Shown here: piece by piece, positions 5,972-62,190 of the stretch
How positions within the stretch are numbered: position 1 is the first letter of the stretch
Layout: every line of letters starts with the position of its first letter
NCBI GenBank assembly: GCA_030432565.1
Contig: JAUIGV010000002.1
Span: 124,001-188,000, forward strand
Direction of reading: 5' to 3'
DNA: 64,000 nt
DNA from: Verrucomicrobiia bacterium
GTDB lineage: Bacteria; Verrucomicrobiota; Verrucomicrobiia; Verrucomicrobiales; Akkermansiaceae
Notes under the pieces: model-generated
Database searches by the model: none
The model's input: the letters and a program-made list of their open reading frames with translations, nothing else
What the model was told of the DNA's origin: nothing
Program-made: the position numbers and the translations under genes

Positions 5972-7557
5972 CGGATCGAAATCTTGAGGAATTGCTGGCA
6001 AAGGCGGTGCAAGGTGACCTTTCTCCGAAGGAGGTGGATTGTCTGGTGAAGTGGTGTCGGGAGGATGATGCGGTGAGGCAGCGCTTGGTGCGATTGATGC
6101 AGGTTGAGCGGCTCACAGGGTTGGCTCTTGAAGATGATGGGAAAGAATTCTCTCTGGAATTCCGGTATCGATTGGAGGCGGAAGGTGATGAAGCCTTTGC
6201 AACGGGAGTGGTCTCGGAACTAAAACGGGGGAGGATCGTAAAATGGATTTCTGCCGTGTCAGCATTGGCAGCAGTCGTGTTGCTTTCCTTGTTCTTGGTT
6301 TTGAGGAGTGGCGATAAGGTTGTGGGCGAAATTGTGAGAGTCGAGGCAGGCGAATTTTCCGGTGATCGAAAGGAGCTGAAAGCTGGAGACCGGGTGAGTT
6401 TTGATCAGGGTTTGGTGGAATTGCGGTTTTACACCGGAGTGAGGGTGGTGATCGAGGCTCCGGCCGACTTTGAAGTGACGGGGAAGAACGAAGCGTTTTT
6501 GCATCGGGGGAAATTGGTGGCGGAGGTCGACGATGAAACGGCCCATGGATTTGTCATTGATGGCCCGTCGGGAAGGCTGGTGGATTTGGGAACCAAGTTT
6601 GCGGTTTCCGTGGAAGACAGTGGCGAAATGGAAGTGCATGTGATTGAGGGGATGGTCGATGCGACCGCGACAGGAGGGACGACCTCCCGGGTGAAGCGGA
6701 ACGAAGCGATGCGGTTGGCGGACGGAGAAGCCGTTCCGGTGATGGCCGATGTGGGCAAATTTGTGACAAGAATGCCGGATTATGAAAACGGGCCTCCGAG
6801 GTCGGTGCGATGGAAGTTTGATGAGTCGGATGGTGGGGAGGTTCTCGATACGGGAACAGGATTGGCTGATGGCAAAGCCACCGGGAAACTCAAGTCGTTT
6901 TCAGGTCTTGGAAATGGTCCGCGCAGAGTGAGCGGAAAGTTTGGCAAGGCCCTGGATTTTGATGGAGAAGATGCTTTCGTGGAAACGGAATACACGGGGA
7001 TTACCGGGAGTGGGCCTCGCACCGTGGCATTTTGGGTGAGGGTTCCGGAGGATTTTGATCAGATGCAAGGGTATGGGATTATCAACTGGGGGGATGTCAG
7101 GGTCCCGGGAGGAGCGTGGCAGATTTCAGTGAACGGGACGGAATCCGACGGTCCTTTGGGGAAGCTGCGGATCGGAACAACCTCGGGCCAGGTCATCGGG
7201 ACCTCGGATCTTTGCGATGGAGAGTGGCACCATTGCGCCGTAGTAATGTATGGAGATGAGGCCGGGAAGCCCAACACGGCGACGCATATCTTGCTTTATG
7301 TCGACGGAAAGCTGGAGCCTGCGGCAAGGAAGTCGTTGCAAGTGGTGGATACCGTTGAACCTACTTTACCTGGCCGTGAGTCGCACGGAATCTGGATGGG
7401 GCGGAATCTGGGCTTCGAACGTGAGGATTCTCCCAGTGGTCAAAGTTACGGGAAATTTTTCCGGGGAGCGATTGATGAAATGGTCATTTGCGACATGGCT
7501 CTCAGCCGCGAGAAGATTGTCAGACTATTGGAGTTTAACGAGATGCCCGAGGAGTAG
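5968..7557 (+). CDS. FecR-domain transmembrane protein with C-terminal LamG domain
   Basis: 529 residues. Residues 1-85 are a charged cytoplasmic region that may hold the anti-sigma part. One membrane helix lies at ~90-112 (WISAVSALAAVVLLSLFLVL). A FecR-like domain at ~118-265 contains FYTGVRVVIEAPADF, LVDLGTKFAVSV and MEVHVIEGMV. A LamG/concanavalin-like domain occupies ~285-525 (SGPRTVAFWVRVP, DGEWHHCAVVMY, RGAIDEMVICD). This is the usual partner of Verrucomicrobium-type ECF factors, reached here by a 4-nt overlap. A role sensing an extracytoplasmic glycan and releasing the sigma factor is inferred. Its 3' end overlaps the convergent phosphatase gene by 23 bp. Confidence 0.9.
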   Translation: MTDRNLEELLAKAVQGDLSPKEVDCLVKWCREDDAVRQRLVRLMQVERLTGLALEDDGKEFSLEFRYRLEAEGDEAFATGVVSELKRGRIVKWISAVSALAAVVLLSLFLVLRSGDKVVGEIVRVEAGEFSGDRKELKAGDRVSFDQGLVELRFYTGVRVVIEAPADFEVTGKNEAFLHRGKLVAEVDDETAHGFVIDGPSGRLVDLGTKFAVSVEDSGEMEVHVIEGMVDATATGGTTSRVKRNEAMRLADGEAVPVMADVGKFVTRMPDYENGPPRSVRWKFDESDGGEVLDTGTGLADGKATGKLKSFSGLGNGPRRVSGKFGKALDFDGEDAFVETEYTGITGSGPRTVAFWVRVPEDFDQMQGYGIINWGDVRVPGGAWQISVNGTESDGPLGKLRIGTTSGQVIGTSDLCDGEWHHCAVVMYGDEAGKPNTATHILLYVDGKLEPAARKSLQVVDTVEPTLPGRESHGIWMGRNLGFEREDSPSGQSYGKFFRGAIDEMVICDMALSREKIVRLLEFNEMPEE

Positions 7558-10500
7558 ATTCAAGCTGCCATTGGCCTCGATAGAAGAGAGACGTGGATTC
7601 TGACGGTAACGAAGGAAGGCTTAGGGTCGTTGTTGAGCCGTCGGATTCTCGAATGAAGGACGAGGCGGGCAAAGGAGTCCAGGTGATGAGGTCGCTTGAG
7701 CTGGCGATGACGAATTGCTCGGCACGGGCTCCGGCGGGAAAAGGGGAAGTGAAGGCTGCTTGGTTGTTGTTGGTGGCTGCGGTGGGCTCGATCGTTGGAG
7801 CTGTTTCGAGGACTTGAACTTCGGCGGTTTGAGAAGTTTCACCGTTGATGGTGAGAGTGAAGGTGGTTGCTTCACGAGGAGAGACTTCGAGGAAGCCGAT
7901 GCCGTTGACGGTAAACGGGCTGACGTCTTCACCGTTGAGGGTGACTGTTTCGCCAGGGGTGATGTTCCAGTGGAGAAGCGAGCTTTGTCCCGGGATGATG
8001 CGGGGAATGAGAGCTTCGAAGGAATTGATCGCCGGAGCAGGGAATGTAGCAGGGGCCTGGTTGGTGAGAGTGCGCCCGTCACTGAGTTCGATGCGGTAAG
8101 TAAGAGAGTTGTCGTAAACGGGTGGTCGGACGAGGCTGTCCCGGGTCCGGATGGCGTAGATTAACTCGTTACTTGTTTCGTCGTAGACTCTGAGAACGGG
8201 TGAAGGGTTGATTCCGGTGGTGATAGCCGGGAGGTAGCCGGTGGGGACTCTTCCGTCGTTCTCAGTTTGGGAGATGGTGAGAGGCCAGTCGTCGAATTGC
8301 GATCCGGTTGAGGGGAATTCGGGGTCGGCATGAAGGGGCCAGGTTTCAAAGGTGATCCGGCGGTTGCTTTTGTTCATCCGAATGATGCCATATCCGGCGC
8401 CCCGGTCGTGGAGGTTCGCCGGAGAGATGTTGCGAGTCTGATTGTAATATTGGTGAGGGTTTCCAACGGCGAGAACGCGGAGGTGATGGGGAAATTGCGA
8501 GGTCAGGTTTGACTGGCCTGTTGGCAGGTTGCCGGTGCCATCGAAGAAGAAGTCTCCCGTGTAAGGACTCACTGTGTTGGTGCGGCCGGCCGAGTTATTG
8601 ACGGGGTCCCAGGCCCGCGGGAAAAAGTTGGCAATGGCAGGAGCGGTGAAGGAAAATCCGGCGTCGGCCGGGCCGTCGATGCCGTGGTGGGCGAAGGTGG
8701 CGAGGTGTTGGTCTCCGGCGATTTGAAACATTCGGGAGAGGCGCAGGAGTTCCCATGTTTCGTTGCGGCGGTGGGTGGGCCAGCCGTGGGTGTCGCGGTC
8801 ATTGAGTCCAAATCCGTATCCGCTGTTGGCGTGGGTGTGGAGGTTTCCAAACGGGGATTGTGAGACGACGCATTTGATTTCCTGATCATCCCAGTCCTCG
8901 GCCCAGGCGCGAAGAAAGTCTTTCTGGCGGTTGCCGAGAAGGAATTGCTGGTTGAGGTCGGCTGGTGGATTTGTGCTGCCGGTTTTGAATTTACGATCTT
9001 CGAGGATGGCAAACCCGATTCCACCATAAATCATGCCGGTAAAGTAGGTGGGAATCCCCTGGGCGACCGGGGGCGCAGGTTGGACCGGGTTGTAGGGATC
9101 GCTGTCAGGAAGGTGGAGGGTCTGGGTTCGTTCGACCATCTTGACCCAAGTCGCAGGTTCATCGTACCCGCCGGTGTTTTGGCTGGTGGTGAAGATGCCG
9201 CCCTCTCCCCAGAGATTGCCTTGGAAAACGTCGTGATCATCGGGAATACAAATAGTGGGGCGGTCTTTGGTGATTTCCCGGGCCTGAAGTACCCAGAGAT
9301 ACCATTTATAAAGGTAGTCGTGGTGGCGGTTGAAGTCGATGCTGCTGTCCTCGGGGGTGGGTTGTCCTTCGTAAATCTGGTCGCCCAAGGCAAGGAAGAC
9401 ATCGGGATCGTGTTTGGCGATATGATTGAAGGCGAGAGTGTGGGGTTGCCAAAGGCGAACGGGTGACCAGTCGAATCCGTCGTTCTGAACCTGCCCGTCC
9501 GCGATACGCTGGCAGGTTGTCGCGGCGACCGAGATGCTTTCTTGGTCGGTCGGGTTTTTACGAATGAATCCGTTCCAGTGGTATTGTGTTCCGTCGATAG
9601 TGATCGTGGTGCGGGTCTCAATTTCGCGGGTGTCATCCCAATCGGAAACGCGGAAGGTCGCGGTGTAAGATGAGAGATTGTCGGTGGTGTCGATGGGGGC
9701 GCTGGCCACGGTTTGCCACACTTCGCCGTTCCGGACTTCGAGAAGTAGATCGGAAGTGTTGGCGAGGTCCATGGGTGGAAGTTGGGCGGTAAGTTTGAGC
9801 GTATTACGGCTGAGGCTGTACATTGAGCCAAGGATGGCGAGGTGTCGGTCGGGCTCGGGATTGAGGGCGGGGCCTGATCCGGTAAAATCATCAAACCAAA
9901 ACCGGGCGTCGTTTGCTCCTTTGTGAGAAAGGAGGGCGAGAGAACCGAGAATCTGATCGGAGGGTACTTCGGCGATGGCGCGGCTTCTGAAGGTGTTGTT
10001 GAGATCGAAGGCGTCGAGCGTGAGCCGGTAGGTCCCGGAGTCGGGTAGATAAACGGCGTTGAGATCCAGCCGGGTGTTGTTCGAGAGTGACACCTGGGGC
10101 TCACCCGCAGCGAGGAGGTTGGTTCCTCCGGTGGTCATATCTTCGATGACGGCTGAGCCATCACCCCTCATCCCGAGGAAGATTCCGAAGTCGCGGCCCA
10201 AGCCGTCGTGCACGAGGAGGGAACCTCGCCAATCGAGTGAGGGTCCGGCGCCGAGGATGAAGCCGGAACGGGCGCCACTTGAACTGTTACCGGCATGGAG
10301 TCCGGTGCGAACAGAGAAGGTGAAGTTCTGTCCGTTGCCCCGGAGGGTGGTGTTGGTTTTATGGAGGGTTCGGCGATCGCGGTCTCCGAGGATGCAGTTG
10401 ACCCGGCCATTCCGAACCTCCCAGTCGTGCAGGCGATTTCCCCAGAAGCCGGGCCCGGGCCAGACCTGGTTGGGGGTGGTGTTCCAGTTGATTTGGAAGT

Positions 10501-11635
10501 CTTCGCGAGGAGCGTCCTCACTCCACGAGTCGAGGCGAACGTTGTCGATGGATTGGAAGTTGTTCTCGGGAGTGGGAGTGCCGCGGAAGCGAATGCCCAG
10601 CGCTTTTCCTGCGTGGGCATCAAGAGTTCCGGGAGGGACGGCGAGGTGGTAGTGGAACCATGAGCCAACAGTGGGGGATTTGAAGTCGTAGGACCGTGAG
10701 GCGATGGGTTGGACGATCCCATCTTCTTCGACGTAAAGTTCGGCGGTGAAGTTGCGCTGGACAGGTGTTCCGGTTGATTGGCCTCGCTGGAGAGTGAAGT
10801 TTTCAAGCCGGGCGAATCCGCCGCCTCCATTGATGGCCTGAAAGGAGGCGAAGAGACGTTTGTCCGCAAAGGAGGTTGGCACCGGGGCAAAAACTGAACG
10901 CTGGGTTTCGTAGGTTGCGGGGATGGTGGAAAGATCCGAATCGATGCTTTGGATGATGGTTTCGTTTCCGGTGATGGTATCATCGTCGGTGGTGAAAAGA
11001 ATGACGCGGACGCGGTTGGAATCGGAGTTCCAGTTGAAGGCATCCCGCCATTGGTAGGTGACCTGAAAGACCTCGCCTGCAATTAGGGTGTGGCCGGTAT
11101 CGATGGCGAATCGACGTTGGGCATTGGCGGAGAGAACGGCGTTGCGACTCCCGTCGAGGGCGGTGTTGGCGGGATTGAAGCGAGTGGCCTGGCTGGCTTG
11201 GTTTACGGTGCCGAGATTGTACCAAAACGGCGTTTGTTCGTAGTTGCGTCCATCGATGGGAGAAGTGTCTTCGTTGAAGTCTCCATTGCGGACTCCCGGC
11301 CCGACAAGGGTGAGGTTGGGGATAAAGTCCCCACCGGGAGTGGCTCCGCTGAAGATCGCGGCATCGAATCGCAGTGAGTATGAGGCTCCGGTTTCGATGA
11401 GGTGGGGAGTAAGTTGGCGAATCTCGCCGGAGTCTTCGAAAGTCAGTCGCCATCCGCCGTTTCCGTAATCCGTGCGGTCATTGATGACCTGGCCGCTGCC
11501 CTCCCACGCAATGACGGAGAGGTCGGAGACGGGGGTGCGGTCGATTCCGTTATTGATTTCGCCTCCGGGGTTGAGCAGAGAGACAGGAGCGGCGATGGCC
11601 GGAGTGAGGAGGGCGATGAGGAAGAGTCTGAACAT
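7535..11635 (-). CDS. Secreted PhoD-like metallophosphatase with beta-sandwich modules
   Basis: 1366 residues with a signal peptide (MFRLFLIALLTPAIAA). About the first 390 residues are beta-rich, including a block shared with the adjacent sulfatase (ALDGSRNAVLSANA, FQVTYQWRDAFNW, GGFARLENFTLQRG). A LamG-like domain follows at ~400-610. The PhoD-like calcineurin fold spans ~690-1140, with metal-site motifs FLALGDQIYEG, ICIPDDHDVFQGN, QSPFGNLH and QIAGDQHLATFAHHG. C-terminal Ig-like domains end in the SSSDLITW...LFYRG module. PhoD enzymes are secreted alkaline phosphatases or phosphodiesterases. Only 5 bp separate it from the sulfatase stop upstream, so they form an operon. The length and accessory modules are far beyond a typical ~500-residue PhoD. 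Confidence 0.9.
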   Translation of the reverse strand: MFRLFLIALLTPAIAAPVSLLNPGGEINNGIDRTPVSDLSVIAWEGSGQVINDRTDYGNGGWRLTFEDSGEIRQLTPHLIETGASYSLRFDAAIFSGATPGGDFIPNLTLVGPGVRNGDFNEDTSPIDGRNYEQTPFWYNLGTVNQASQATRFNPANTALDGSRNAVLSANAQRRFAIDTGHTLIAGEVFQVTYQWRDAFNWNSDSNRVRVILFTTDDDTITGNETIIQSIDSDLSTIPATYETQRSVFAPVPTSFADKRLFASFQAINGGGGFARLENFTLQRGQSTGTPVQRNFTAELYVEEDGIVQPIASRSYDFKSPTVGSWFHYHLAVPPGTLDAHAGKALGIRFRGTPTPENNFQSIDNVRLDSWSEDAPREDFQINWNTTPNQVWPGPGFWGNRLHDWEVRNGRVNCILGDRDRRTLHKTNTTLRGNGQNFTFSVRTGLHAGNSSSGARSGFILGAGPSLDWRGSLLVHDGLGRDFGIFLGMRGDGSAVIEDMTTGGTNLLAAGEPQVSLSNNTRLDLNAVYLPDSGTYRLTLDAFDLNNTFRSRAIAEVPSDQILGSLALLSHKGANDARFWFDDFTGSGPALNPEPDRHLAILGSMYSLSRNTLKLTAQLPPMDLANTSDLLLEVRNGEVWQTVASAPIDTTDNLSSYTATFRVSDWDDTREIETRTTITIDGTQYHWNGFIRKNPTDQESISVAATTCQRIADGQVQNDGFDWSPVRLWQPHTLAFNHIAKHDPDVFLALGDQIYEGQPTPEDSSIDFNRHHDYLYKWYLWVLQAREITKDRPTICIPDDHDVFQGNLWGEGGIFTTSQNTGGYDEPATWVKMVERTQTLHLPDSDPYNPVQPAPPVAQGIPTYFTGMIYGGIGFAILEDRKFKTGSTNPPADLNQQFLLGNRQKDFLRAWAEDWDDQEIKCVVSQSPFGNLHTHANSGYGFGLNDRDTHGWPTHRRNETWELLRLSRMFQIAGDQHLATFAHHGIDGPADAGFSFTAPAIANFFPRAWDPVNNSAGRTNTVSPYTGDFFFDGTGNLPTGQSNLTSQFPHHLRVLAVGNPHQYYNQTRNISPANLHDRGAGYGIIRMNKSNRRITFETWPLHADPEFPSTGSQFDDWPLTISQTENDGRVPTGYLPAITTGINPSPVLRVYDETSNELIYAIRTRDSLVRPPVYDNSLTYRIELSDGRTLTNQAPATFPAPAINSFEALIPRIIPGQSSLLHWNITPGETVTLNGEDVSPFTVNGIGFLEVSPREATTFTLTINGETSQTAEVQVLETAPTIEPTAATNNNQAAFTSPFPAGARAEQFVIASSSDLITWTPLPASSFIRESDGSTTTLSLPSLPSESTSLFYRGQWQLESTPRASR

Positions 11636-11640
11636 GACAA

Positions 11641-14600
11641 TTAAGGCTGATGGATGAGTCGGAAGAAGCGGATCCCGTCAGCCGGAATGACCGCGGATTG
11701 GGAAAATCGGCCAAGCCCCGGTCGGTGGAAATGCTCTTCTTCACCGATGACGAAAAATTGGCCGCCGGGGAAGGCGTCACCCCAGTTGACAAGGTCGGTG
11801 GAAGATTGAATTTGAAAGGACGTCGCTTGTCCAAGAGATGAGACGGGATAACTGATACTGCTTGAGGTCGAGGTCCGGGAGACGGTGAGTGGGTGGGTTT
11901 TGGTGAACTCGGCGGGGTTGCTGCCGGTGAAGAATTCGAGTCCGTTGGAAATACCATCGAGATCGGGGTCCGCTGAGAAAAGAGAGTCGGCTCCGGAGAG
12001 CATGTGGGTTTGTTCTGACCAGATTTGATAAGCTTGGATGGAACGGACGAGTGCGATTTGGTTCCCTTGGTAATGGTAGTCGAAGAGGTATCCGGCTGGC
12101 GGAACGTTGGCATCGCGGAAGCCATCGACGAGGGTGGTGTAGGTGATAATGGGGTAGATGGCTTCGGTTAGGTTTTGAGCCGACCAAGTGAGGGTGGTGT
12201 TTGAAAGATTGAGTTCTCCGGTGGAGACAAGTTGATCGGATTGAGCTCCGTCGATTTCTAGGTGGAGCCTTCCAGGGGCGGCGTTGTGGATGGTCAAGGT
12301 CCCAATGCCCTGGCCCGGGGAAATGGTGCCGGGACCGGTGAGGGAATGAGTCAGAGTGCCGTTGCCGGAAAGTGTGCCGTTCTCCGCGAGGATCACGTCG
12401 GAGGAGAGGGTGGTGTCCGCGGCCAGAATGATTTCTCCACCGGTAATGGTGGTGGTTCCGGTGTGGGTGGGAGAGGATTTGATGAGCAAGGTGGAAGTTC
12501 CGGACTTGGTGAGAGAGGCAGATGGATGATATTCCGAAATCTGGCCTTCTAGAATGAAGGTGGCGGTTCCGTCTCCGGTGATTTCGAGATCGTTGTAAAG
12601 GGCGAGGTCCTGCTGGATGAGGAAGGTGTAGTTGGAGCCCATGGCATCGAGACGGATGCTTGGAGGCGTATTGTTGAGGGCGTTGGTGAGGAGAAGATCG
12701 TTTCCGCGCAGGGTGGCGGATTGGGGGGATGGAGCATCGAACGATCCGGTGAGGTGGAGCGCGTTGAGCATGAAGGTGAGGCCGCTGATACGGGTCATGT
12801 CATTGTTGGCCTCATAGGAGAATTCCGGGGTCGCCGGGAATTGAAGGACGCAGCCGGGGAAGGCGTCGGTTCGAAGGAGGGTGTCCGGCGAGTTGGTTTC
12901 GGCATCGATCCAGGCGGAACCTTGAGACCAATCGACAAAGGTTGGTGTGTTGACACCGCCTTGCCCTAGGGTTCCGCGTTGAAGTTCAAAGTTGTCAAGT
13001 CGGGCGAATCCACTGCCTGATTGAGCGGCGTTGATTTCGATGAAGAGTCGTTTGCCTTGTGCACTGGCGCTGATGGGATTGAAGAGGAGGGTTTCGGTTT
13101 GGTAACTTGAGTCGGAAGTGGAGGTTCTGGATACGAGTTGCTGGAGATCGGTGCGGGATCCAGTGAAGGTGTTGTTGGAGGTGGTGAAAAGGGTGACTGC
13201 GATGAGGTCGGAAGCGTCGTTCCAACCGGAGGCGTCGCGCCATTGGAAAGTGGCCTGGAAGATTTCTCCACTTGATAAATTATGACCGGTATCGAGTCCG
13301 GCGGCACGGGCAATGGTTTCGGCGATGATGGCATTTCTGGATCCGTCCGCCGAGAGGCTGGTGTTGGTGAAGTTTTCCGAGGAGGTGCCGGTGCCTGTGT
13401 TTTCCCACGAAGAGGTTTGCGCGAAGGTTTGCACACCTCCCGCACCACCCGCATTAAAGTTGCCGTTGCGCAAATCCCCCCCGACGAGAGTCAGGTTTGG
13501 AGTGAAATCTCCCTGTAGCGTTGCCCGGGGTGCGAACACGAAAGTGTTGTTTAGGTTGATGGAAGAAGGCGCGCTTCCAAGCCCGGCATGACGAGGTTTG
13601 TCGGCGGTGGTTTCGAAAGCGGTAAAGTCGTTGAGGAGGTCTTCGACGATGCTGGGGTTGGTGGCGGCGAGGTCTCTTGTTTCTCCCGGATCTTCCGAAA
13701 CGTTAAAAAGTAAGAAGGGTGAGTTGGCGGCGTTCCTGGCAAGCTTCCAGTCGCCTTTCCGGACACTCACTTTGGTGTCGTTTCGAATGGTGATGACTTC
13801 GTGGGGGACGCCGGGAATGGTGGAGTTGAGATAGGGGAGAAGGCTGACGCCGTCGATTTCGGCGGGAGGGCCTGCGCCAGCGGCATCGAGGCAGGTGGGG
13901 AGAATGTCGATGGAGTGGATGGGGGCGTGGTAGGTGGCATTCTCCGGAAGCCCGGTTCCTGCAATGATCATGGGGACGCGCGTTCCGCCCTCAAAGATGG
14001 AGCCTTTGAAGCTGCGTAGAGGAGTGTTGTCGGCTCCGATTCCGGAGGCACCTCCGTTATCGTTGATGAAGATGACGAGCGTCCTTTCGGTAAGTGAGAC
14101 CGAACCATCGCCTGCGGGGTTATCGAGGGTGTCAAGGATGTTGCCAATTTCGCGATCCATGGTGAGGACCATGGAGGCGTAATTTTTGCGAGTACCCGAG
14201 AGGGCTGTCAGGCGTGGATCACCAATGTCAGGGGAGGGGCCGATGGGTGAGTGAGGGGCGGTGAAAGAAACATAGAGGAAAAAGGGATCGGGGTCAGCGT
14301 GGTGTCTCTTGATGAAATTCACGGCACCCGTTCCGAATGCATTGGTGACGTAATTTCTGGTGGTGTTCCAGGGCGGGGTGGTCTCGAGGACGGTATCAGA
14401 GAAGGGGGAGGTGATGGTTTCACGCAGGGTTCCAGATCCCGTCGTTGTCCCGATGGTGTAATTTCGGGAGCCTTTCCAAATTCCAAAGAATTCATCGACG
14501 CCTTGATTTTCGGGTCGGTTGCCGAGTCCGCCGCCATTGTCGCGCGCGCCGAGGTGCCACTTGCCCACGACGCCGGTGGTGTAGCCCTCGGATTTCATTC

Positions 14601-14967
14601 GGTCAAAGATGGTGGTTGTGTCGGGTGAAAGTCCGTCAATGTTATTGGCCCCCATGAGGTTGTTGATGTTATATTCGTATCCAATTCGTTGTTGGTAGGA
14701 TCCGGTGACGATGGCAGCTCGGGAGGGCGAGCAAACAGCTGCGGTGTAGGCATTCGTGAGGAGGGTTCCCCGCTGGCGGAGGGCGTCGAGGTTGGGGGTG
14801 GGGACCGGCGATTCGGGCTGACCGGGATTGAGAGTTTGAAGGTAATCATCCATGAAACCCCAGTCGGCATAACCGGCGTCGTCTGAAATGATTACGACAA
14901 CATTGGGACGCTGTGCGAGGAGGGGATAAATCAGAAAGAAGAGTAAGGCGGCCGGAAGAAATCTCAT
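11641..14967 (-). CDS. Secreted sulfatase with beta-sandwich and autotransporter-type repeat modules
   Basis: 1108 residues. Signal peptide MRFLPAALLFFLIYPLLA is followed directly by the alkaline-phosphatase-fold start RPNVVVIISDD. The formylglycine motif CSPSR lies near residue 80 (AAVCSPSRAAIVTG), with GKWHLG near 138 and the metal/substrate region IFINDNGG near 300; the catalytic domain ends about residue 465. A ~180-residue domain shared with the neighbouring phosphatase follows. Next come passenger-associated repeats (TKSGTSTLLIKSSPTHTGTT, GTISPGQGIGTL) at ~790-930. The C-terminal module is FQIQSSTDLVNW...FFRLIHQP. It probably desulfates marine polysaccharide. The CSPSR Cys needs conversion to formylglycine by a maturase not found here. 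Confidence 0.93.
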   Translation of the reverse strand: MRFLPAALLFFLIYPLLAQRPNVVVIISDDAGYADWGFMDDYLQTLNPGQPESPVPTPNLDALRQRGTLLTNAYTAAVCSPSRAAIVTGSYQQRIGYEYNINNLMGANNIDGLSPDTTTIFDRMKSEGYTTGVVGKWHLGARDNGGGLGNRPENQGVDEFFGIWKGSRNYTIGTTTGSGTLRETITSPFSDTVLETTPPWNTTRNYVTNAFGTGAVNFIKRHHADPDPFFLYVSFTAPHSPIGPSPDIGDPRLTALSGTRKNYASMVLTMDREIGNILDTLDNPAGDGSVSLTERTLVIFINDNGGASGIGADNTPLRSFKGSIFEGGTRVPMIIAGTGLPENATYHAPIHSIDILPTCLDAAGAGPPAEIDGVSLLPYLNSTIPGVPHEVITIRNDTKVSVRKGDWKLARNAANSPFLLFNVSEDPGETRDLAATNPSIVEDLLNDFTAFETTADKPRHAGLGSAPSSINLNNTFVFAPRATLQGDFTPNLTLVGGDLRNGNFNAGGAGGVQTFAQTSSWENTGTGTSSENFTNTSLSADGSRNAIIAETIARAAGLDTGHNLSSGEIFQATFQWRDASGWNDASDLIAVTLFTTSNNTFTGSRTDLQQLVSRTSTSDSSYQTETLLFNPISASAQGKRLFIEINAAQSGSGFARLDNFELQRGTLGQGGVNTPTFVDWSQGSAWIDAETNSPDTLLRTDAFPGCVLQFPATPEFSYEANNDMTRISGLTFMLNALHLTGSFDAPSPQSATLRGNDLLLTNALNNTPPSIRLDAMGSNYTFLIQQDLALYNDLEITGDGTATFILEGQISEYHPSASLTKSGTSTLLIKSSPTHTGTTTITGGEIILAADTTLSSDVILAENGTLSGNGTLTHSLTGPGTISPGQGIGTLTIHNAAPGRLHLEIDGAQSDQLVSTGELNLSNTTLTWSAQNLTEAIYPIITYTTLVDGFRDANVPPAGYLFDYHYQGNQIALVRSIQAYQIWSEQTHMLSGADSLFSADPDLDGISNGLEFFTGSNPAEFTKTHPLTVSRTSTSSSISYPVSSLGQATSFQIQSSTDLVNWGDAFPGGQFFVIGEEEHFHRPGLGRFSQSAVIPADGIRFFRLIHQP

Positions 14968-50678: not shown

Positions 50679-51455
50679 ATGAAAATTCGATTGATCATTC
50701 TTGGAGCGGTCGCAAGTTGGGCCGTGATGGCAGGACTCGCGGAACCACTCCCCAAAGCCGACGGCAAGGTCTCGGCGACCATACTTCCTCTCGATGCCAA
50801 GACGGCAAAGGTAAAATACGAAACCGCGACCTTCGGCTTGGGCTGATTTTGGGGACCTGACTCCGAGTTCGGAAGTCTCAAGGGTGTTCTTCGCACACGC
50901 GTTGGCTATGCGGGTGGTGATAAGGCTAACCCCACCTATTACAGCCTGGGGAAACACACCGAGGTGATCTCAATCGACTTCGATCCCAAGGTGTTGAAAT
51001 ACGAGGATCTTCTGGAAATTTTTTGGTCGGCCCACCGGTGTGATCAGATCAATACCTCGCGCCAGTATATGAATGCGGTCTTTTTTCACGACGAGGCGCA
51101 AAAGAAGGCTGCCGAGAAATCCAAGGCCGCCGCCGCCGCAAAGCAGGGGGTGGGGGTCGAGGAGGTTCAGACCACGATTGCTCCGGTCGGGAAATTTACC
51201 TACGCCGAAGGTTACCACCAAAAATATTATCTCACCCGGTTTGGCGATATTCGGGATATCCTCACCAGGACTTACAAAACTGAAAAGGAATTGGCCGACT
51301 CCACGGTTGCGACCCGGCTCAATGCCTATCTGGGATCCGGGATGAAGCGTGACTGGGCGGTGTTTATCAAAGAGCTTCCGGACTACGGAATGCCGGAGGA
51401 GTTGGAGAAAGCTCTTTCCAAGGCGGCCGTGCGCATGCTCGACGAAGCAAAGTAG
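50679..51455 (+). CDS. msrA: Exported selenocysteine peptide-methionine sulfoxide reductase A (in-frame TGA = Sec56)
   Basis: 258 residues with TGA 50844-50846 read as selenocysteine; a stop-obeying reading would give only a 55-residue stub. From ATG 50679 the frame reads a signal peptide (MKIRLIILGAVASWAVMAGL), then ATFGLG-U-FWGPDSEFG, which aligns with the MsrA nucleophile motif GCFWG. The same frame continues without stops to TAG 51455: VGYAGGDKANPTYYSLGKHT, then SIDFDPKVLKYEDLLEIFWS, SRQYMNAVFFHDEA and TYAEGYHQKYYL. MsrA reduces S-methionine sulfoxide; Sec greatly raises its rate in known cases. A hairpin with G in its loop follows the TGA. Alternatives are a mutated or mis-sequenced Cys codon. 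No sel genes are in the window. Confidence 0.85.
50859..50877 (+). promoter_or_regulatory. Candidate bacterial SECIS element
   Basis: GACTCCGAGTTCGGAAGTC folds as GACT:AGTC and CCG:CGG with one bulged A and loop AGTT. The loop G (50867) lies 21 nt after the TGA. Bacterial SECIS models want a hairpin with G in the first two loop positions about 16-37 nt past the UGA, as I recall them. The upper stem is only seven pairs, so this is suggestive. Confidence 0.6.
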
Positions 51456-51528: not shown

Positions 51529-51732
51529 ATGAAAAGCACCATCATATGTGGAGTCTGCGCGCTCGCGTTTTCGGCTCTGGTTTCCTGCGAGTCCAGTAAC
51601 AGTCGCCGGGCCGGCGGGGCTGCTTTTGATGATTCGGAGCTTGGGCGCAAGCTTGACGCCAACTCCCATCTCCCGGATCCCGACAACCCGAGCGGGCAGT
51701 CGTTCGAGCAGTGGCGGGATACCGTTCGGTAA
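51529..51732 (+). CDS. Small lipoprotein
   Basis: 67 residues with a lipoprotein signal (MKSTIICGVCALAFSALVSC; lipobox LVSC). The mature ~48 residues are acidic and Gly/Ser-rich (GAAFDDSELGRKLDANSHLP), with no domain. It lies 73 bp after msrA on the same strand. Function is unknown; existence is supported by the lipobox. Confidence 0.75.
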   Translation: MKSTIICGVCALAFSALVSCESSNSRRAGGAAFDDSELGRKLDANSHLPDPDNPSGQSFEQWRDTVR

Positions 51733-60144: not shown

Positions 60145-60292
60145 GCACTCATCGATGGTTTCGGGAAGCCCGTCGCACGGGCAGGAAATTGATGGGGAAT
60201 CCGGTGAAGTCGATCTCGATGTATTCCGGAGCGGTCCCGCCACTGTAAGTTTACTTTCCAATGGAAATGAATGAGCCAGATCGCCAGCCTGA
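60145..60292 (+). promoter_or_regulatory. Cobalamin riboswitch
   Basis: Recognisable pieces in order: the GCCCGTCGCACGGGC hairpin at 60168-60182, GATGGGGAATCCGGTG near 60191-60206, GCGGTCCCGCCACTGTAA at 60230-60247 and the B12 box AGCCAGATCGCCAGCC near 60273-60288. It ends about 57 nt before the TonB receptor ATG, so adenosylcobalamin or a related cobamide should repress that gene, most likely by translation or early termination. Confidence 0.92.
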
Positions 60293-60348
60293 AGTCTTTT
60301 GACAATCATGGAGCCTGCGGAGTTCGGGTTCCTGTCTTGAAAAAATAA

Positions 60349-62190
60349 ATGACCAAAGAAAAAACCGTCCTTCCGGGACTGTTGGGGCTTCTTGGCTTGG
60401 GTATTTCATCCGGCCAAAAAGTCGAAGAGCTTGAGCCGTTGACGGTCCTTGCGCGAAGAATTGAATCTGCGAGTGATGAAAATGCCTCGTCGGTGGGCAT
60501 CATTACCTTCAATGAGTTGGCGAGAATGCAACGGCATCGATTGCTGGAGTCCCTTGATCTCATTCCCGGGACACAGGTGCTCTCCACTGCCGGGCTTACG
60601 GGGAATACCGGAACGGCAATCATTCGCGGTCTTCCGAGCCGATACCAGCAGATCATGGTGGATGGAGTGCGGGTTTCGGACAACACGAATTCGATGGGGA
60701 ACTTCCTCGCCAACGGGCAACTGGGACAGATTACCAAAATTGAGGTGCTGCGGGGACCGCAGAGTGTGCTTTACGGCACAGGTGCTGGTGGTGGTGTGAT
60801 TGGTTACGAGACTTCAGTGGGTTCGGGAGATCCGGTGCATCAGCTTTTTGCCGAGGGTGGTAGCTTCGAGACTTTTCGAACGACCCTCGGTTCGCGTGGA
60901 CAGCTTGAGGATTTCGCCTATGGAGTTGAGATTGGCTATCAATTCTCCGGGAATGATACTTATGAGGCTCTGCCTCTGCACGACTACGGCCAGAGCTCCC
61001 TCAATTTGGCGCTGCAATGGCAGCTGGAAGAGGATCTTCGCCTGAAGGTGACCTATCGCGGCACTGACAATCTTCTTGAAACCCGGGCTTCCAATGCGTT
61101 TGGAGTTTCAAGTTCTGAGATCGAAACAGAGACGGCATTGCTTTCCGCAAACCTCTTCTACCAAGTCAATCCCGGCTGGAATGCGCGCCTGACCACGGGG
61201 GTCTATTACGAAAATTACCGAGGCGATTTCGACGGTTTTCGATTTGGGACCGATCAGGAACGATGGACCATCAACTGGAGCAATGAAGTCGTTCTCAGCG
61301 ATGCGGTCACTTTGGTTGCCGGCTTGGAGGGGTCGGTGAGCCACTTCGACAATTCAGGCGGACGGAGTGTCGATGAGTCCATCGCCGGAGCGTATGCCAA
61401 CTTCTACTATCGACCGGTTGAAGCACTCTTGCTCGAGGTTGGAGGAAGATATGATGAGCATAATGAATTCGATGGAGATTCTGCGTGGAATGCCGGAGCG
61501 GTTTATTCTTTCGGCGAATCAGGAACGCGTATTCATGCCAGGGCCAGTGAGGCTTACCGCAACCCAAGCCGTCTTGATTCCGAGTTCTTTCCCTCGTTCT
61601 TTTCCAACCAGCTCGCCAATCCGGACCTACGATCCGAAGAAATTGTCGGGTGGGAAACGGGATTCACCCAACGTCTCGGAGATCATGAATTTGGCGTGAC
61701 CTATTATAAACAGGAGTTGGAAGATGCTATTGTTACGAGCTTTCCGGCTGCGGGAACCACCCGCCGGATCAATCGGGCAGGAGTGTCGGCGGTGAGTGGC
61801 CTCGAGATCTCGGCGAACGGGAAGTTGATTTCCGACCGATTGGGATATCGCATGGCCTTCACCTCCCAATTTGACGAGGAGGTGATTGATCTCCCAAATC
61901 AACTTGTTTCCATTGACCTGAGTTATGATGCAGACCGTTGGTTGATTGGGGCGGGGGTTTCTTATGTTGGTGAAGCGGCCTACCTGGCTCCCGGAAATCC
62001 CCAAACCGATTCCCGAACTTTGACCAGAATATACGGTCATTTTCAGGTGACCGAGTCGCTTGCATTGCATGCCCGGATCGAGAATGTCTTTGATCAGGAC
62101 TATCAATTGTTTCCGGATACCTTTGGAGAAGGGACCGGAGTGGAGGGACCCGGCAGGTCCGTTTTTGCAGGTGCCACTCTTTCCTGGTAA
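60349..62190 (+). CDS. btuB: TonB-dependent cobalamin receptor (BtuB-like)
   Basis: 613 residues; the first ~22 residues look like a weak signal peptide (VLPGLLGLLGLGISSG). A TonB box-like segment LEPLTVLARR is followed by the plug domain (LLESLDLIPGTQVL, TAIIRGLPSRYQQIMVDGVR, IEVLRGPQSVLYGTGAGGGV). A beta-barrel rich in alternating strands ends in aromatic Trp (FAGATLSW). Ligand inferred from the upstream cobalamin riboswitch, since receptors alone do not name substrates. It imports corrinoids across the outer membrane with TonB energy. No periplasmic or ABC partner is adjacent. A perfect hairpin follows the stop. Confidence 0.92.
   Translation: MTKEKTVLPGLLGLLGLGISSGQKVEELEPLTVLARRIESASDENASSVGIITFNELARMQRHRLLESLDLIPGTQVLSTAGLTGNTGTAIIRGLPSRYQQIMVDGVRVSDNTNSMGNFLANGQLGQITKIEVLRGPQSVLYGTGAGGGVIGYETSVGSGDPVHQLFAEGGSFETFRTTLGSRGQLEDFAYGVEIGYQFSGNDTYEALPLHDYGQSSLNLALQWQLEEDLRLKVTYRGTDNLLETRASNAFGVSSSEIETETALLSANLFYQVNPGWNARLTTGVYYENYRGDFDGFRFGTDQERWTINWSNEVVLSDAVTLVAGLEGSVSHFDNSGGRSVDESIAGAYANFYYRPVEALLLEVGGRYDEHNEFDGDSAWNAGAVYSFGESGTRIHARASEAYRNPSRLDSEFFPSFFSNQLANPDLRSEEIVGWETGFTQRLGDHEFGVTYYKQELEDAIVTSFPAAGTTRRINRAGVSAVSGLEISANGKLISDRLGYRMAFTSQFDEEVIDLPNQLVSIDLSYDADRWLIGAGVSYVGEAAYLAPGNPQTDSRTLTRIYGHFQVTESLALHARIENVFDQDYQLFPDTFGEGTGVEGPGRSVFAGATLSW

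What the first reader, a model, noticed from the sequence alone, without database searches (positions are those of the whole stretch)
50679..51455. MsrA with an in-frame TGA exactly at the catalytic cysteine: likely selenoprotein
The reading frame from ATG 50679 meets only one stop, TGA at 50844-50846, and it falls where every MsrA has its nucleophilic Cys (GCFWG; here GLG-TGA-FWG). The frame then runs stop-free to TAG 51455 with full MsrA homology on both sides. Sec-containing MsrA is known from a few bacteria and algae. A standard caller would annotate only the 164-residue remainder from 50964 and miss the active site.
Basis: partly seen in the sequence, partly recalled or inferred. Interest (0 to 1): 0.92.

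Follow-up and report, generated by a model that had tools for sequence, protein, structure and literature searches.

The report
Selenium-containing methionine sulfoxide reductase (MsrA)
This verrucomicrobial gene almost certainly encodes a protein-repair enzyme whose catalytic residue is selenocysteine, read from a codon that normally means stop; the enzyme type is known from a few other bacteria, but I found no description of it in this lineage.

Summary
The frame 50679-51455 encodes a 258-residue MsrA with one internal stop, TGA 50844-50846, at the catalytic Cys. All 23 copies that show the site in the 58 genomes searched (the window's own and 22 relatives) have one TGA at that column, and dN is far below dS on both sides in 9 of 9 relatives compared. 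The genome holds tRNA-Sec with anticodon UCA, SelA, SelB, and a SelD that itself has an in-frame TGA. A hairpin at 50859-50877 fits the published bacterial SECIS model, and its bases change together across 36 loci. The selD genes show a similar hairpin, missing from the one Cys-type SelD read. Closest known enzyme: the two-domain selenoprotein MsrA of Clostridium oremlandii. Two features differ: a signal-like N-terminus and one extra Cys (Cys121) in the active-site loop, which may resolve the oxidised Sec. Sec-MsrA is an established family, so this is a new member, possibly a variant. Sec insertion, activity, export and the role of Cys121 are inferred, not shown.

The parts
50679..51455 (+). 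msrA selenoprotein gene: 258 aa with Sec at codon 56, terminated by TAG 51453-51455
50679..50741 (+). N-terminal hydrophobic signal-like segment (residues 1-21), possible export signal
   Evidence: sequence; Kyte-Doolittle scan of relatives; model pLDDT under 50 at residues 1-21
50844..50846 (+). UGA codon for Sec56 at the catalytic position (GUFWG)
50859..50877 (+). SECIS upper hairpin GACUCCG-AGUU-CGG-A-AGUC; apical loop AGUU at 50866-50869, 19 nt after the UGA
51039..51041 (+). codon of Cys121 (HRCDQ loop), the only Cys of the protein; candidate resolving residue
51240..51452 (+). C-terminal helical domain (about residue 188 to the end), as in C. oremlandii MsrA
   Evidence: domain limits of C. 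oremlandii MsrA from passages of PMC4333827

Best explanation
The gene is a bacterial selenoprotein MsrA. During translation, SelB carrying Sec-tRNA-Sec (made by SelA with selenophosphate from SelD) binds the hairpin just downstream of UGA 50844 and selenocysteine is inserted at residue 56. Sec56 attacks methionine-S-sulfoxide and releases methionine. The oxidised Sec is then reduced, perhaps through a bond with Cys121 in the active-site loop, and finally by an external thiol reductant. The N-terminal segment probably directs the enzyme out of the cytoplasm. Shown by sequence: conserved UGA, selection on both sides, machinery genes, SECIS-like hairpin with linked base changes, fold and active-site residues. 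Inferred: actual Sec insertion, activity, export (about 0.75) and the role of Cys121 (about 0.5). The confidence given below is for a Sec-inserting MsrA, not for the last two.
For: Single TGA at the same column in 23 of 23 copies holding the site: the window and 22 relatives of 40-91% identity. Six of these 23 genes end in TGA themselves (one other, L026, is cut at its end), so TGA is still a stop. Machinery in the window's own genome: tRNA-Sec 54.4 bits (cut-off 47), called tRNA-SeC with anticodon tca by ARAGORN; SelB 315.6 bits (cut-off 242.25); SelA 489.1 (267.9); SelD 386.7 (125) with one TGA in SCGGU. Of the 23 genomes with TGA-MsrA, 20 have SelB over the cut-off; the other three are 80, 88 and 65% complete. 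Codons +1 to +14 after the TGA have low synonymous variation: ratio 0.56 on 13 columns against 0.85 on 145, permutation p 8e-5, second lowest of 146 contiguous windows, the lowest being the overlapping -2 to +12. Hairpin region (codons 4-12) in the most stable 5% of synonymous versions in 28 of 36 TGA loci and 8 of 43 Cys loci. Pairing rule at the apical stem: 36 of 36 TGA loci, 3 of 43 Cys loci. selD control: 29 of 30 loci have TGA; the one with TGC lacks the hairpin. Top structural match C. oremlandii MsrA, Z 21.7, 205 residues, 40% identity.
Against: No direct proof of Sec. RNAalifold on 23 sequences chose another structure with no compensatory pairs. Codons 1-14 as a whole are not more stable than synonymous versions (mean z -0.17); only codons 4-12 are (mean z -1.84; 13 of 23 loci at or under 0.05 with gene-set codon usage). 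The 19-nt hairpin alone is -6.9 kcal/mol. The pairing rule was framed after seeing the sequences, and the loci are related. G008 (88% complete) has TGA-MsrA but neither SelB nor tRNA-Sec over the cut-offs, though it has a TGA-SelD. Four same-genus genomes (G012, G013, G022, G024) show no copy of this gene. Cys121 is missing from 6 of 35 named TGA loci.
Confidence: 0.96

Rival explanations
1. Sec is inserted, but the enzyme is regenerated as a 1-Cys type like C. oremlandii MsrA: no internal resolving residue, an external thiol such as glutaredoxin acts directly, and Cys121 has another role.
For: C. oremlandii MsrA, the closest solved relative, has no Cys and is reduced by glutaredoxin (passages of PMC4333827 and PMC4479559). 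6 of 35 named TGA loci lack Cys121; the three of these that were printed (L107, L108, L110) have a Cys elsewhere, in GYCGG.
Against: Cys121 is the only Cys in the window protein, is present in 29 of 35 named TGA loci and in 0 of 43 Cys-type loci, and lies in the loop aligned with HNP of C. oremlandii MsrA. That this loop borders the active site in ordinary MsrA is recalled, not tested.
Confidence: 0.4
2. The TGA is a mutation or assembly error in a decaying or truncated gene.
For: An in-frame stop in one genome alone would look like this.
Against: The same TGA in 23 of 23 copies with the site; dN far below dS downstream of it in 9 of 9 relatives compared.
Confidence: 0.01
3. UGA is read as another amino acid (Cys or Trp) by a changed code or a suppressor.
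For: The residue stands where other MsrA have Cys.
Against: UGA ends 6 of the 23 copies; no Cys codon occurs at the site in 35 of 35 named verrucomicrobial loci; the Sec machinery and a SECIS-like hairpin are present.
Confidence: 0.02

Closest known systems
Selenoprotein MsrA of Clostridium oremlandii, CoMsrA (PDB 4lwj, 4u66)
   Same: Sec at the GCFWG/GUFWG site; catalytic domain plus C-terminal helical domain over 205 aligned residues; the active-site residues named in the passages, Trp18, Tyr47, Glu55, Tyr90, His137, Tyr140, are kept as W58, Y87, E95, Y130, H180, Y183.
   Different: CoMsrA has no Cys, this one has Cys121; N-terminal extension of about 40 residues with a signal-like stretch; from Verrucomicrobiota. 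A single origin of Sec in both is not rejected (p-AU 0.309).
Cys-type MsrA relatives in Bacillota (Planococcus, Sporosarcina, Domibacillus), haloarchaea, Cyanobacteria and Atribacterota
   Same: 39-49% identity; the match reaches residue 217 or beyond, into the C-terminal part, in 43 of 43.
   Different: TGT or TGC at the site in 43 of 43, no Cys at the place of Cys121 in 43 of 43.
Ordinary MsrA relatives in the same genome (C65, C30)
   Same: Match over residues 36-189 and 49-184, 36 and 32% identity.
   Different: No in-frame stop.
Marine metagenomic Sec-MsrA (Global Ocean Sampling, PMC2398784)
   Same: MsrA is in its table of selenoprotein families, with 9 in the column that I read as Sec sequences (passages).
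   Different: The word Verrucomicro- does not occur in that text; the sequences were not compared.

Membership tests
Bacterial selenoprotein MsrA | MsrA catalytic domain PF01625 | tested here: met
   131.7 bits, cut-off 23.7
Bacterial selenoprotein MsrA | In-frame UGA at the catalytic Cys, motif GUFWG/H | tested here: met
   GLGUFWG; motif as in passages of PMC13188914
Bacterial selenoprotein MsrA | Bacterial SECIS downstream: 4-16 bp upper stem, 3-9 nt loop, G in the first two loop positions, 16-37 nt spacing, MFE at most -7.5 | tested here: met
   7 bp with one bulged A, loop AGUU, 19 nt; -14.3 kcal/mol for 51 nt, -8.1 for codons 4-12 and -6.9 for the 19-nt hairpin alone, so the energy criterion depends on the segment; criteria
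Bacterial selenoprotein MsrA | Host has selA, selB, selC, selD | tested here: met
Bacterial selenoprotein MsrA | Sec present in the protein and methionine-S-sulfoxide reductase activity | not testable with these tools
   needs 75Se labelling, mass spectrometry, enzyme assay
Two-domain CoMsrA-type MsrA | C-terminal helical domain | tested here: met
   Z 21.7, rmsd 3.2, model 46-255 on 4lwj 6-210
1-Cys type MsrA (CoMsrA class) | No Cys besides the catalytic residue | tested here: not met
   Cys121 present; whether it resolves is untested
2-/3-Cys MsrA (E. coli, M. tuberculosis classes) | Resolving Cys towards the C-terminus (position recalled) | tested here: not met
   no Cys after residue 121; a Cys elsewhere might still resolve

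The most novel reading that the evidence does not exclude
A lineage-specific, probably exported, Sec/Cys two-residue MsrA. After Sec took the active site, a second residue, Cys121, arose in the active-site loop (absent from the deep TGA branches L108-L110 and from 43 of 43 Cys-type relatives), so that the enzyme resolves through a Sec56-Cys121 bond, at a place where, as far as I recall, no described MsrA has its resolving Cys, and outside the cytoplasm.
Probability: 0.4. Interest if true: 0.6.

Novelty: new member of a known kind. Interest (0 to 1): 0.45.

Why it matters
It extends selenoprotein MsrA to a clade of Verrucomicrobiota in which a gene caller that stops at TGA would drop the active site. 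The clade offers a clean comparison of Sec and Cys forms of one enzyme type. Two named species with the gene, Roseibacillus ishigakijimensis KCTC 12986 (with Cys121) and R. persicicus KCTC 12988 (without it, but with two other Cys), bear culture-collection numbers, so Sec insertion and the role of the second Cys could be tested. The short hairpin, with a natural register shift and an A-U/G-C swap, is a compact case for studying what SelB needs.

Tried and rejected
Pseudogene, sequencing error, changed genetic code and an independent downstream gene from GTG 50964 were considered and rejected on conservation, selection and UGA use as a stop. One search covered the wrong Rfam family (SRP RNA); done correctly. 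One search read minus-strand loci on the wrong strand; redone, and nothing is used. RNAalifold and the 14-codon stability test did not support the hairpin; told above.

Rows left out: L095 and L114 (no site on the contig) from the codon counts; L134 (match stretched over a second frame, 11 TGA) and L112 (dropped by the tree program) from the tree; L134, L111, L112 and L152. L134 is counted among the 43 Cys loci. The window itself is not in the trees; L077 (91% identical) stands near it. Whether Sec arose once or twice stays open: the free tree put CoMsrA among Cys forms, but a single Sec clade is not rejected, p-AU 0.309. In the 387-genome phylum search only G000 and G289 scored over 300 bits, both with TGA; listed hits with one TGA at 128-134 bits (G223, G382, G221) were not examined and may be ordinary MsrA with the match running past the stop. 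The 6 viral-contig relatives were not examined. The model's coordinates were not at hand, so the Sec56-Cys121 distance was not measured. The own genome was not searched for further selenoproteins.

Full report
WHAT IS THERE. The frame from ATG 50679 to TAG 51453-51455 holds one internal stop, TGA 50844-50846, codon 56. Read through, it is a 258-residue protein with a PF01625 MsrA domain at residues 49-185 (131.7 bits). The TGA falls in GLG-U-FWG, aligned to residue 16 of C. oremlandii MsrA. The window's genome has 5.93 Mb in 82 contigs. The closest named relatives of the gene lie in records titled Verrucomicrobiales or Akkermansiaceae, most of them metagenome-assembled, so the host is inferred to belong there.

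CONSERVATION. Of 58 genomes searched, the window's own included, 23 hold a copy that covers the site, and 23 of 23 have TGA at one alignment column. Two more copies, G003 and G021, match only one side of the site, G003 at a contig end. Four same-genus genomes (G012, G013, G022, G024; 77, 96, 72 and 85% complete) list only ordinary MsrA matches. dN is far below dS before and after the TGA in 9 of 9 relatives compared. Six of the 23 genes end in TGA; the end of one, L026, is cut off. The window's own genome also has two ordinary MsrA relatives without a stop (C65 and C30). In a wider sample of 387 genomes of the phylum, two matches exceed 300 bits, G000 and G289 (another genus of the family), both with one TGA.

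MACHINERY. tRNA-Sec with 54.4 bits (cut-off 47), read as tRNA-SeC with anticodon tca. The Rfam model also reaches its cut-off in 5 of 14 control genomes, so the anticodon matters. SelB 315.6 bits, SelA 489.1 and SelD 386.7 with an in-frame TGA in SCGGU are over their cut-offs. Across the 58 genomes SelB is over the cut-off in 37, of which 20 have TGA-MsrA; of the 21 without, 3 have it, and these are 80, 88 and 65% complete. One of the three, G008, also lacks tRNA-Sec over the cut-off, but it has a SelD with a TGA.

SECIS. Codons +1 to +14 after the TGA show low synonymous variation: mean ratio 0.56 on 13 scored columns against 0.85 on 145 others, permutation p 8e-5; this is the second lowest of 146 contiguous windows, the lowest being the overlapping -2 to +12. 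In the window the hairpin is GACUCCG-AGUU-CGG-A-AGUC at 50859-50877. It meets the bacterial SECIS model quoted in PMC13188914 (passages): stem of 7 bp with a bulge, loop of 4 with G second, 19 nt from the UGA; energy -14.3 kcal/mol for 51 nt, -8.1 for codons 4-12, but -6.9 for the 19 nt alone, against a criterion of -7.5. Across 36 TGA loci (35 named and the window) three forms occur: CCG-AGUU-CGG (26), C(C/U)CA-GUU-UGGG (8) and CCCG-GUU-CGGG (2). The third base of codon 8 pairs in each form, and the third base of codon 9 is G in the 10 loci of the last two forms, where it can pair, and never in the other 26; this rule holds in 36 of 36, against 3 of 43 Cys-type homologues. The rule was framed after looking, and the loci are kin (16 distinct 19-mers). 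Stability of codons 4-12: 28 of 36 TGA loci and 8 of 43 Cys loci fall in the most stable 5% of uniformly drawn synonymous versions; with the gene set's codon usage 13 of 23 do. Against it: RNAalifold found another fold without compensatory pairs, and codons 1-14 as a whole are not unusually stable (mean z -0.17). As a control, 30 selD loci were read: 29 have TGA and mostly a hairpin of the type ACGCA(A/G)-GU(U/C)-(U/C)UGCGU, with A-U and G-C forms exchanging; the one with TGC, L222, lacks it.

DISTRIBUTION. In named genomes (the best 80 of 431 relatives kept, and one of the two search patterns demanded a Cys codon) 78 loci show the site: TGA in 35 of 35 verrucomicrobial loci (L089 has no group in its title but branches inside them), Cys in 43 of 43 others. 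Several named loci lie on contigs of the same length as unnamed ones, so the two sets overlap. On a tree of 76 rows the two groups part at one branch with support 100/98. With the C. oremlandii sequence added, one origin of Sec is not rejected (p-AU 0.309).

PROTEIN. The predicted model (mean pLDDT 83.7; residues 1-21 under 50) matches the two-domain C. oremlandii MsrA with Z 21.7 over 205 residues; other MsrA structures reach 15.6 at most. The active-site residues named in the passages read of PMC4333827 are kept. [quoted passage not shown]

HOW IT DIFFERS. The window protein has exactly one Sec and one Cys, Cys121, in the loop HRCDQ. A Cys stands there in 29 of 35 named TGA loci with the site and in 0 of 43 Cys-type loci. 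The TGA loci without it include the branch L108-L110, sister to the rest, and R. persicicus L107, nested inside Roseibacillus. This suggests a gain after Sec and one later loss; it is inference and depends on the root. Three of those without Cys121 (L107, L108, L110) have a Cys in GYCGG, and L092 and L106 have both, so another resolving place is possible. The N-terminus has a charged start and a hydrophobic stretch in the close group: Kyte-Doolittle maximum 1.67 or more in 27 of 28 TGA rows from L077 to L105 (L101 the exception), and 1.11 or less in 7 of 7 from L106 to L112; two Cys-type Atribacteria rows (L113, L117) also have one (only 48 of the rows were printed). Export is likely but untested; no signal-peptide program was at hand.

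KNOWN OR NEW. Sec-MsrA is listed as a bacterial selenoprotein with motif GUFWG/H (PMC13188914, passages; PMC9312934, passages), and MsrA is in the selenoprotein table of a marine metagenome study (PMC2398784, passages). Searches joining selenoproteins with Verrucomicrobi- (17 of 17 listed, 20 of 49 listed, 9 of 9) and Roseibacillus with selen- (4 of 4) showed, by title, no paper on a verrucomicrobial MsrA; passages of two of them (PMC4807772, PMC3281104) hold none either. Subscription papers and preprints are mostly not covered. The verdict is a new member of a known kind, with features that may make it a variant.

Noticed in passing
L074:1480-2529 (+), own genome: SelD of the same genome is itself encoded with an in-frame TGA (SCGGU), with a downstream GU-loop hairpin.
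   Followed up: yes
L222: A relative with Cys-type SelD (TGC) lacks the hairpin, a natural Sec/Cys contrast.
   Followed up: partly
window 60146-60306 (+): Cobalamin riboswitch (40.1 bits) just upstream of a TonB-dependent receptor gene at 60349-62190, perhaps a vitamin B12 receptor.
   Followed up: partly
window 51529-51732 (+): Small 67-residue reading frame with a lipoprotein-like start after msrA; no Pfam match.
   Followed up: no
window 7535-14967 (-): Two large adjacent genes, one with a PhoD-like phosphatase domain (1366 aa) and one with a sulfatase domain (1108 aa).
   Followed up: no
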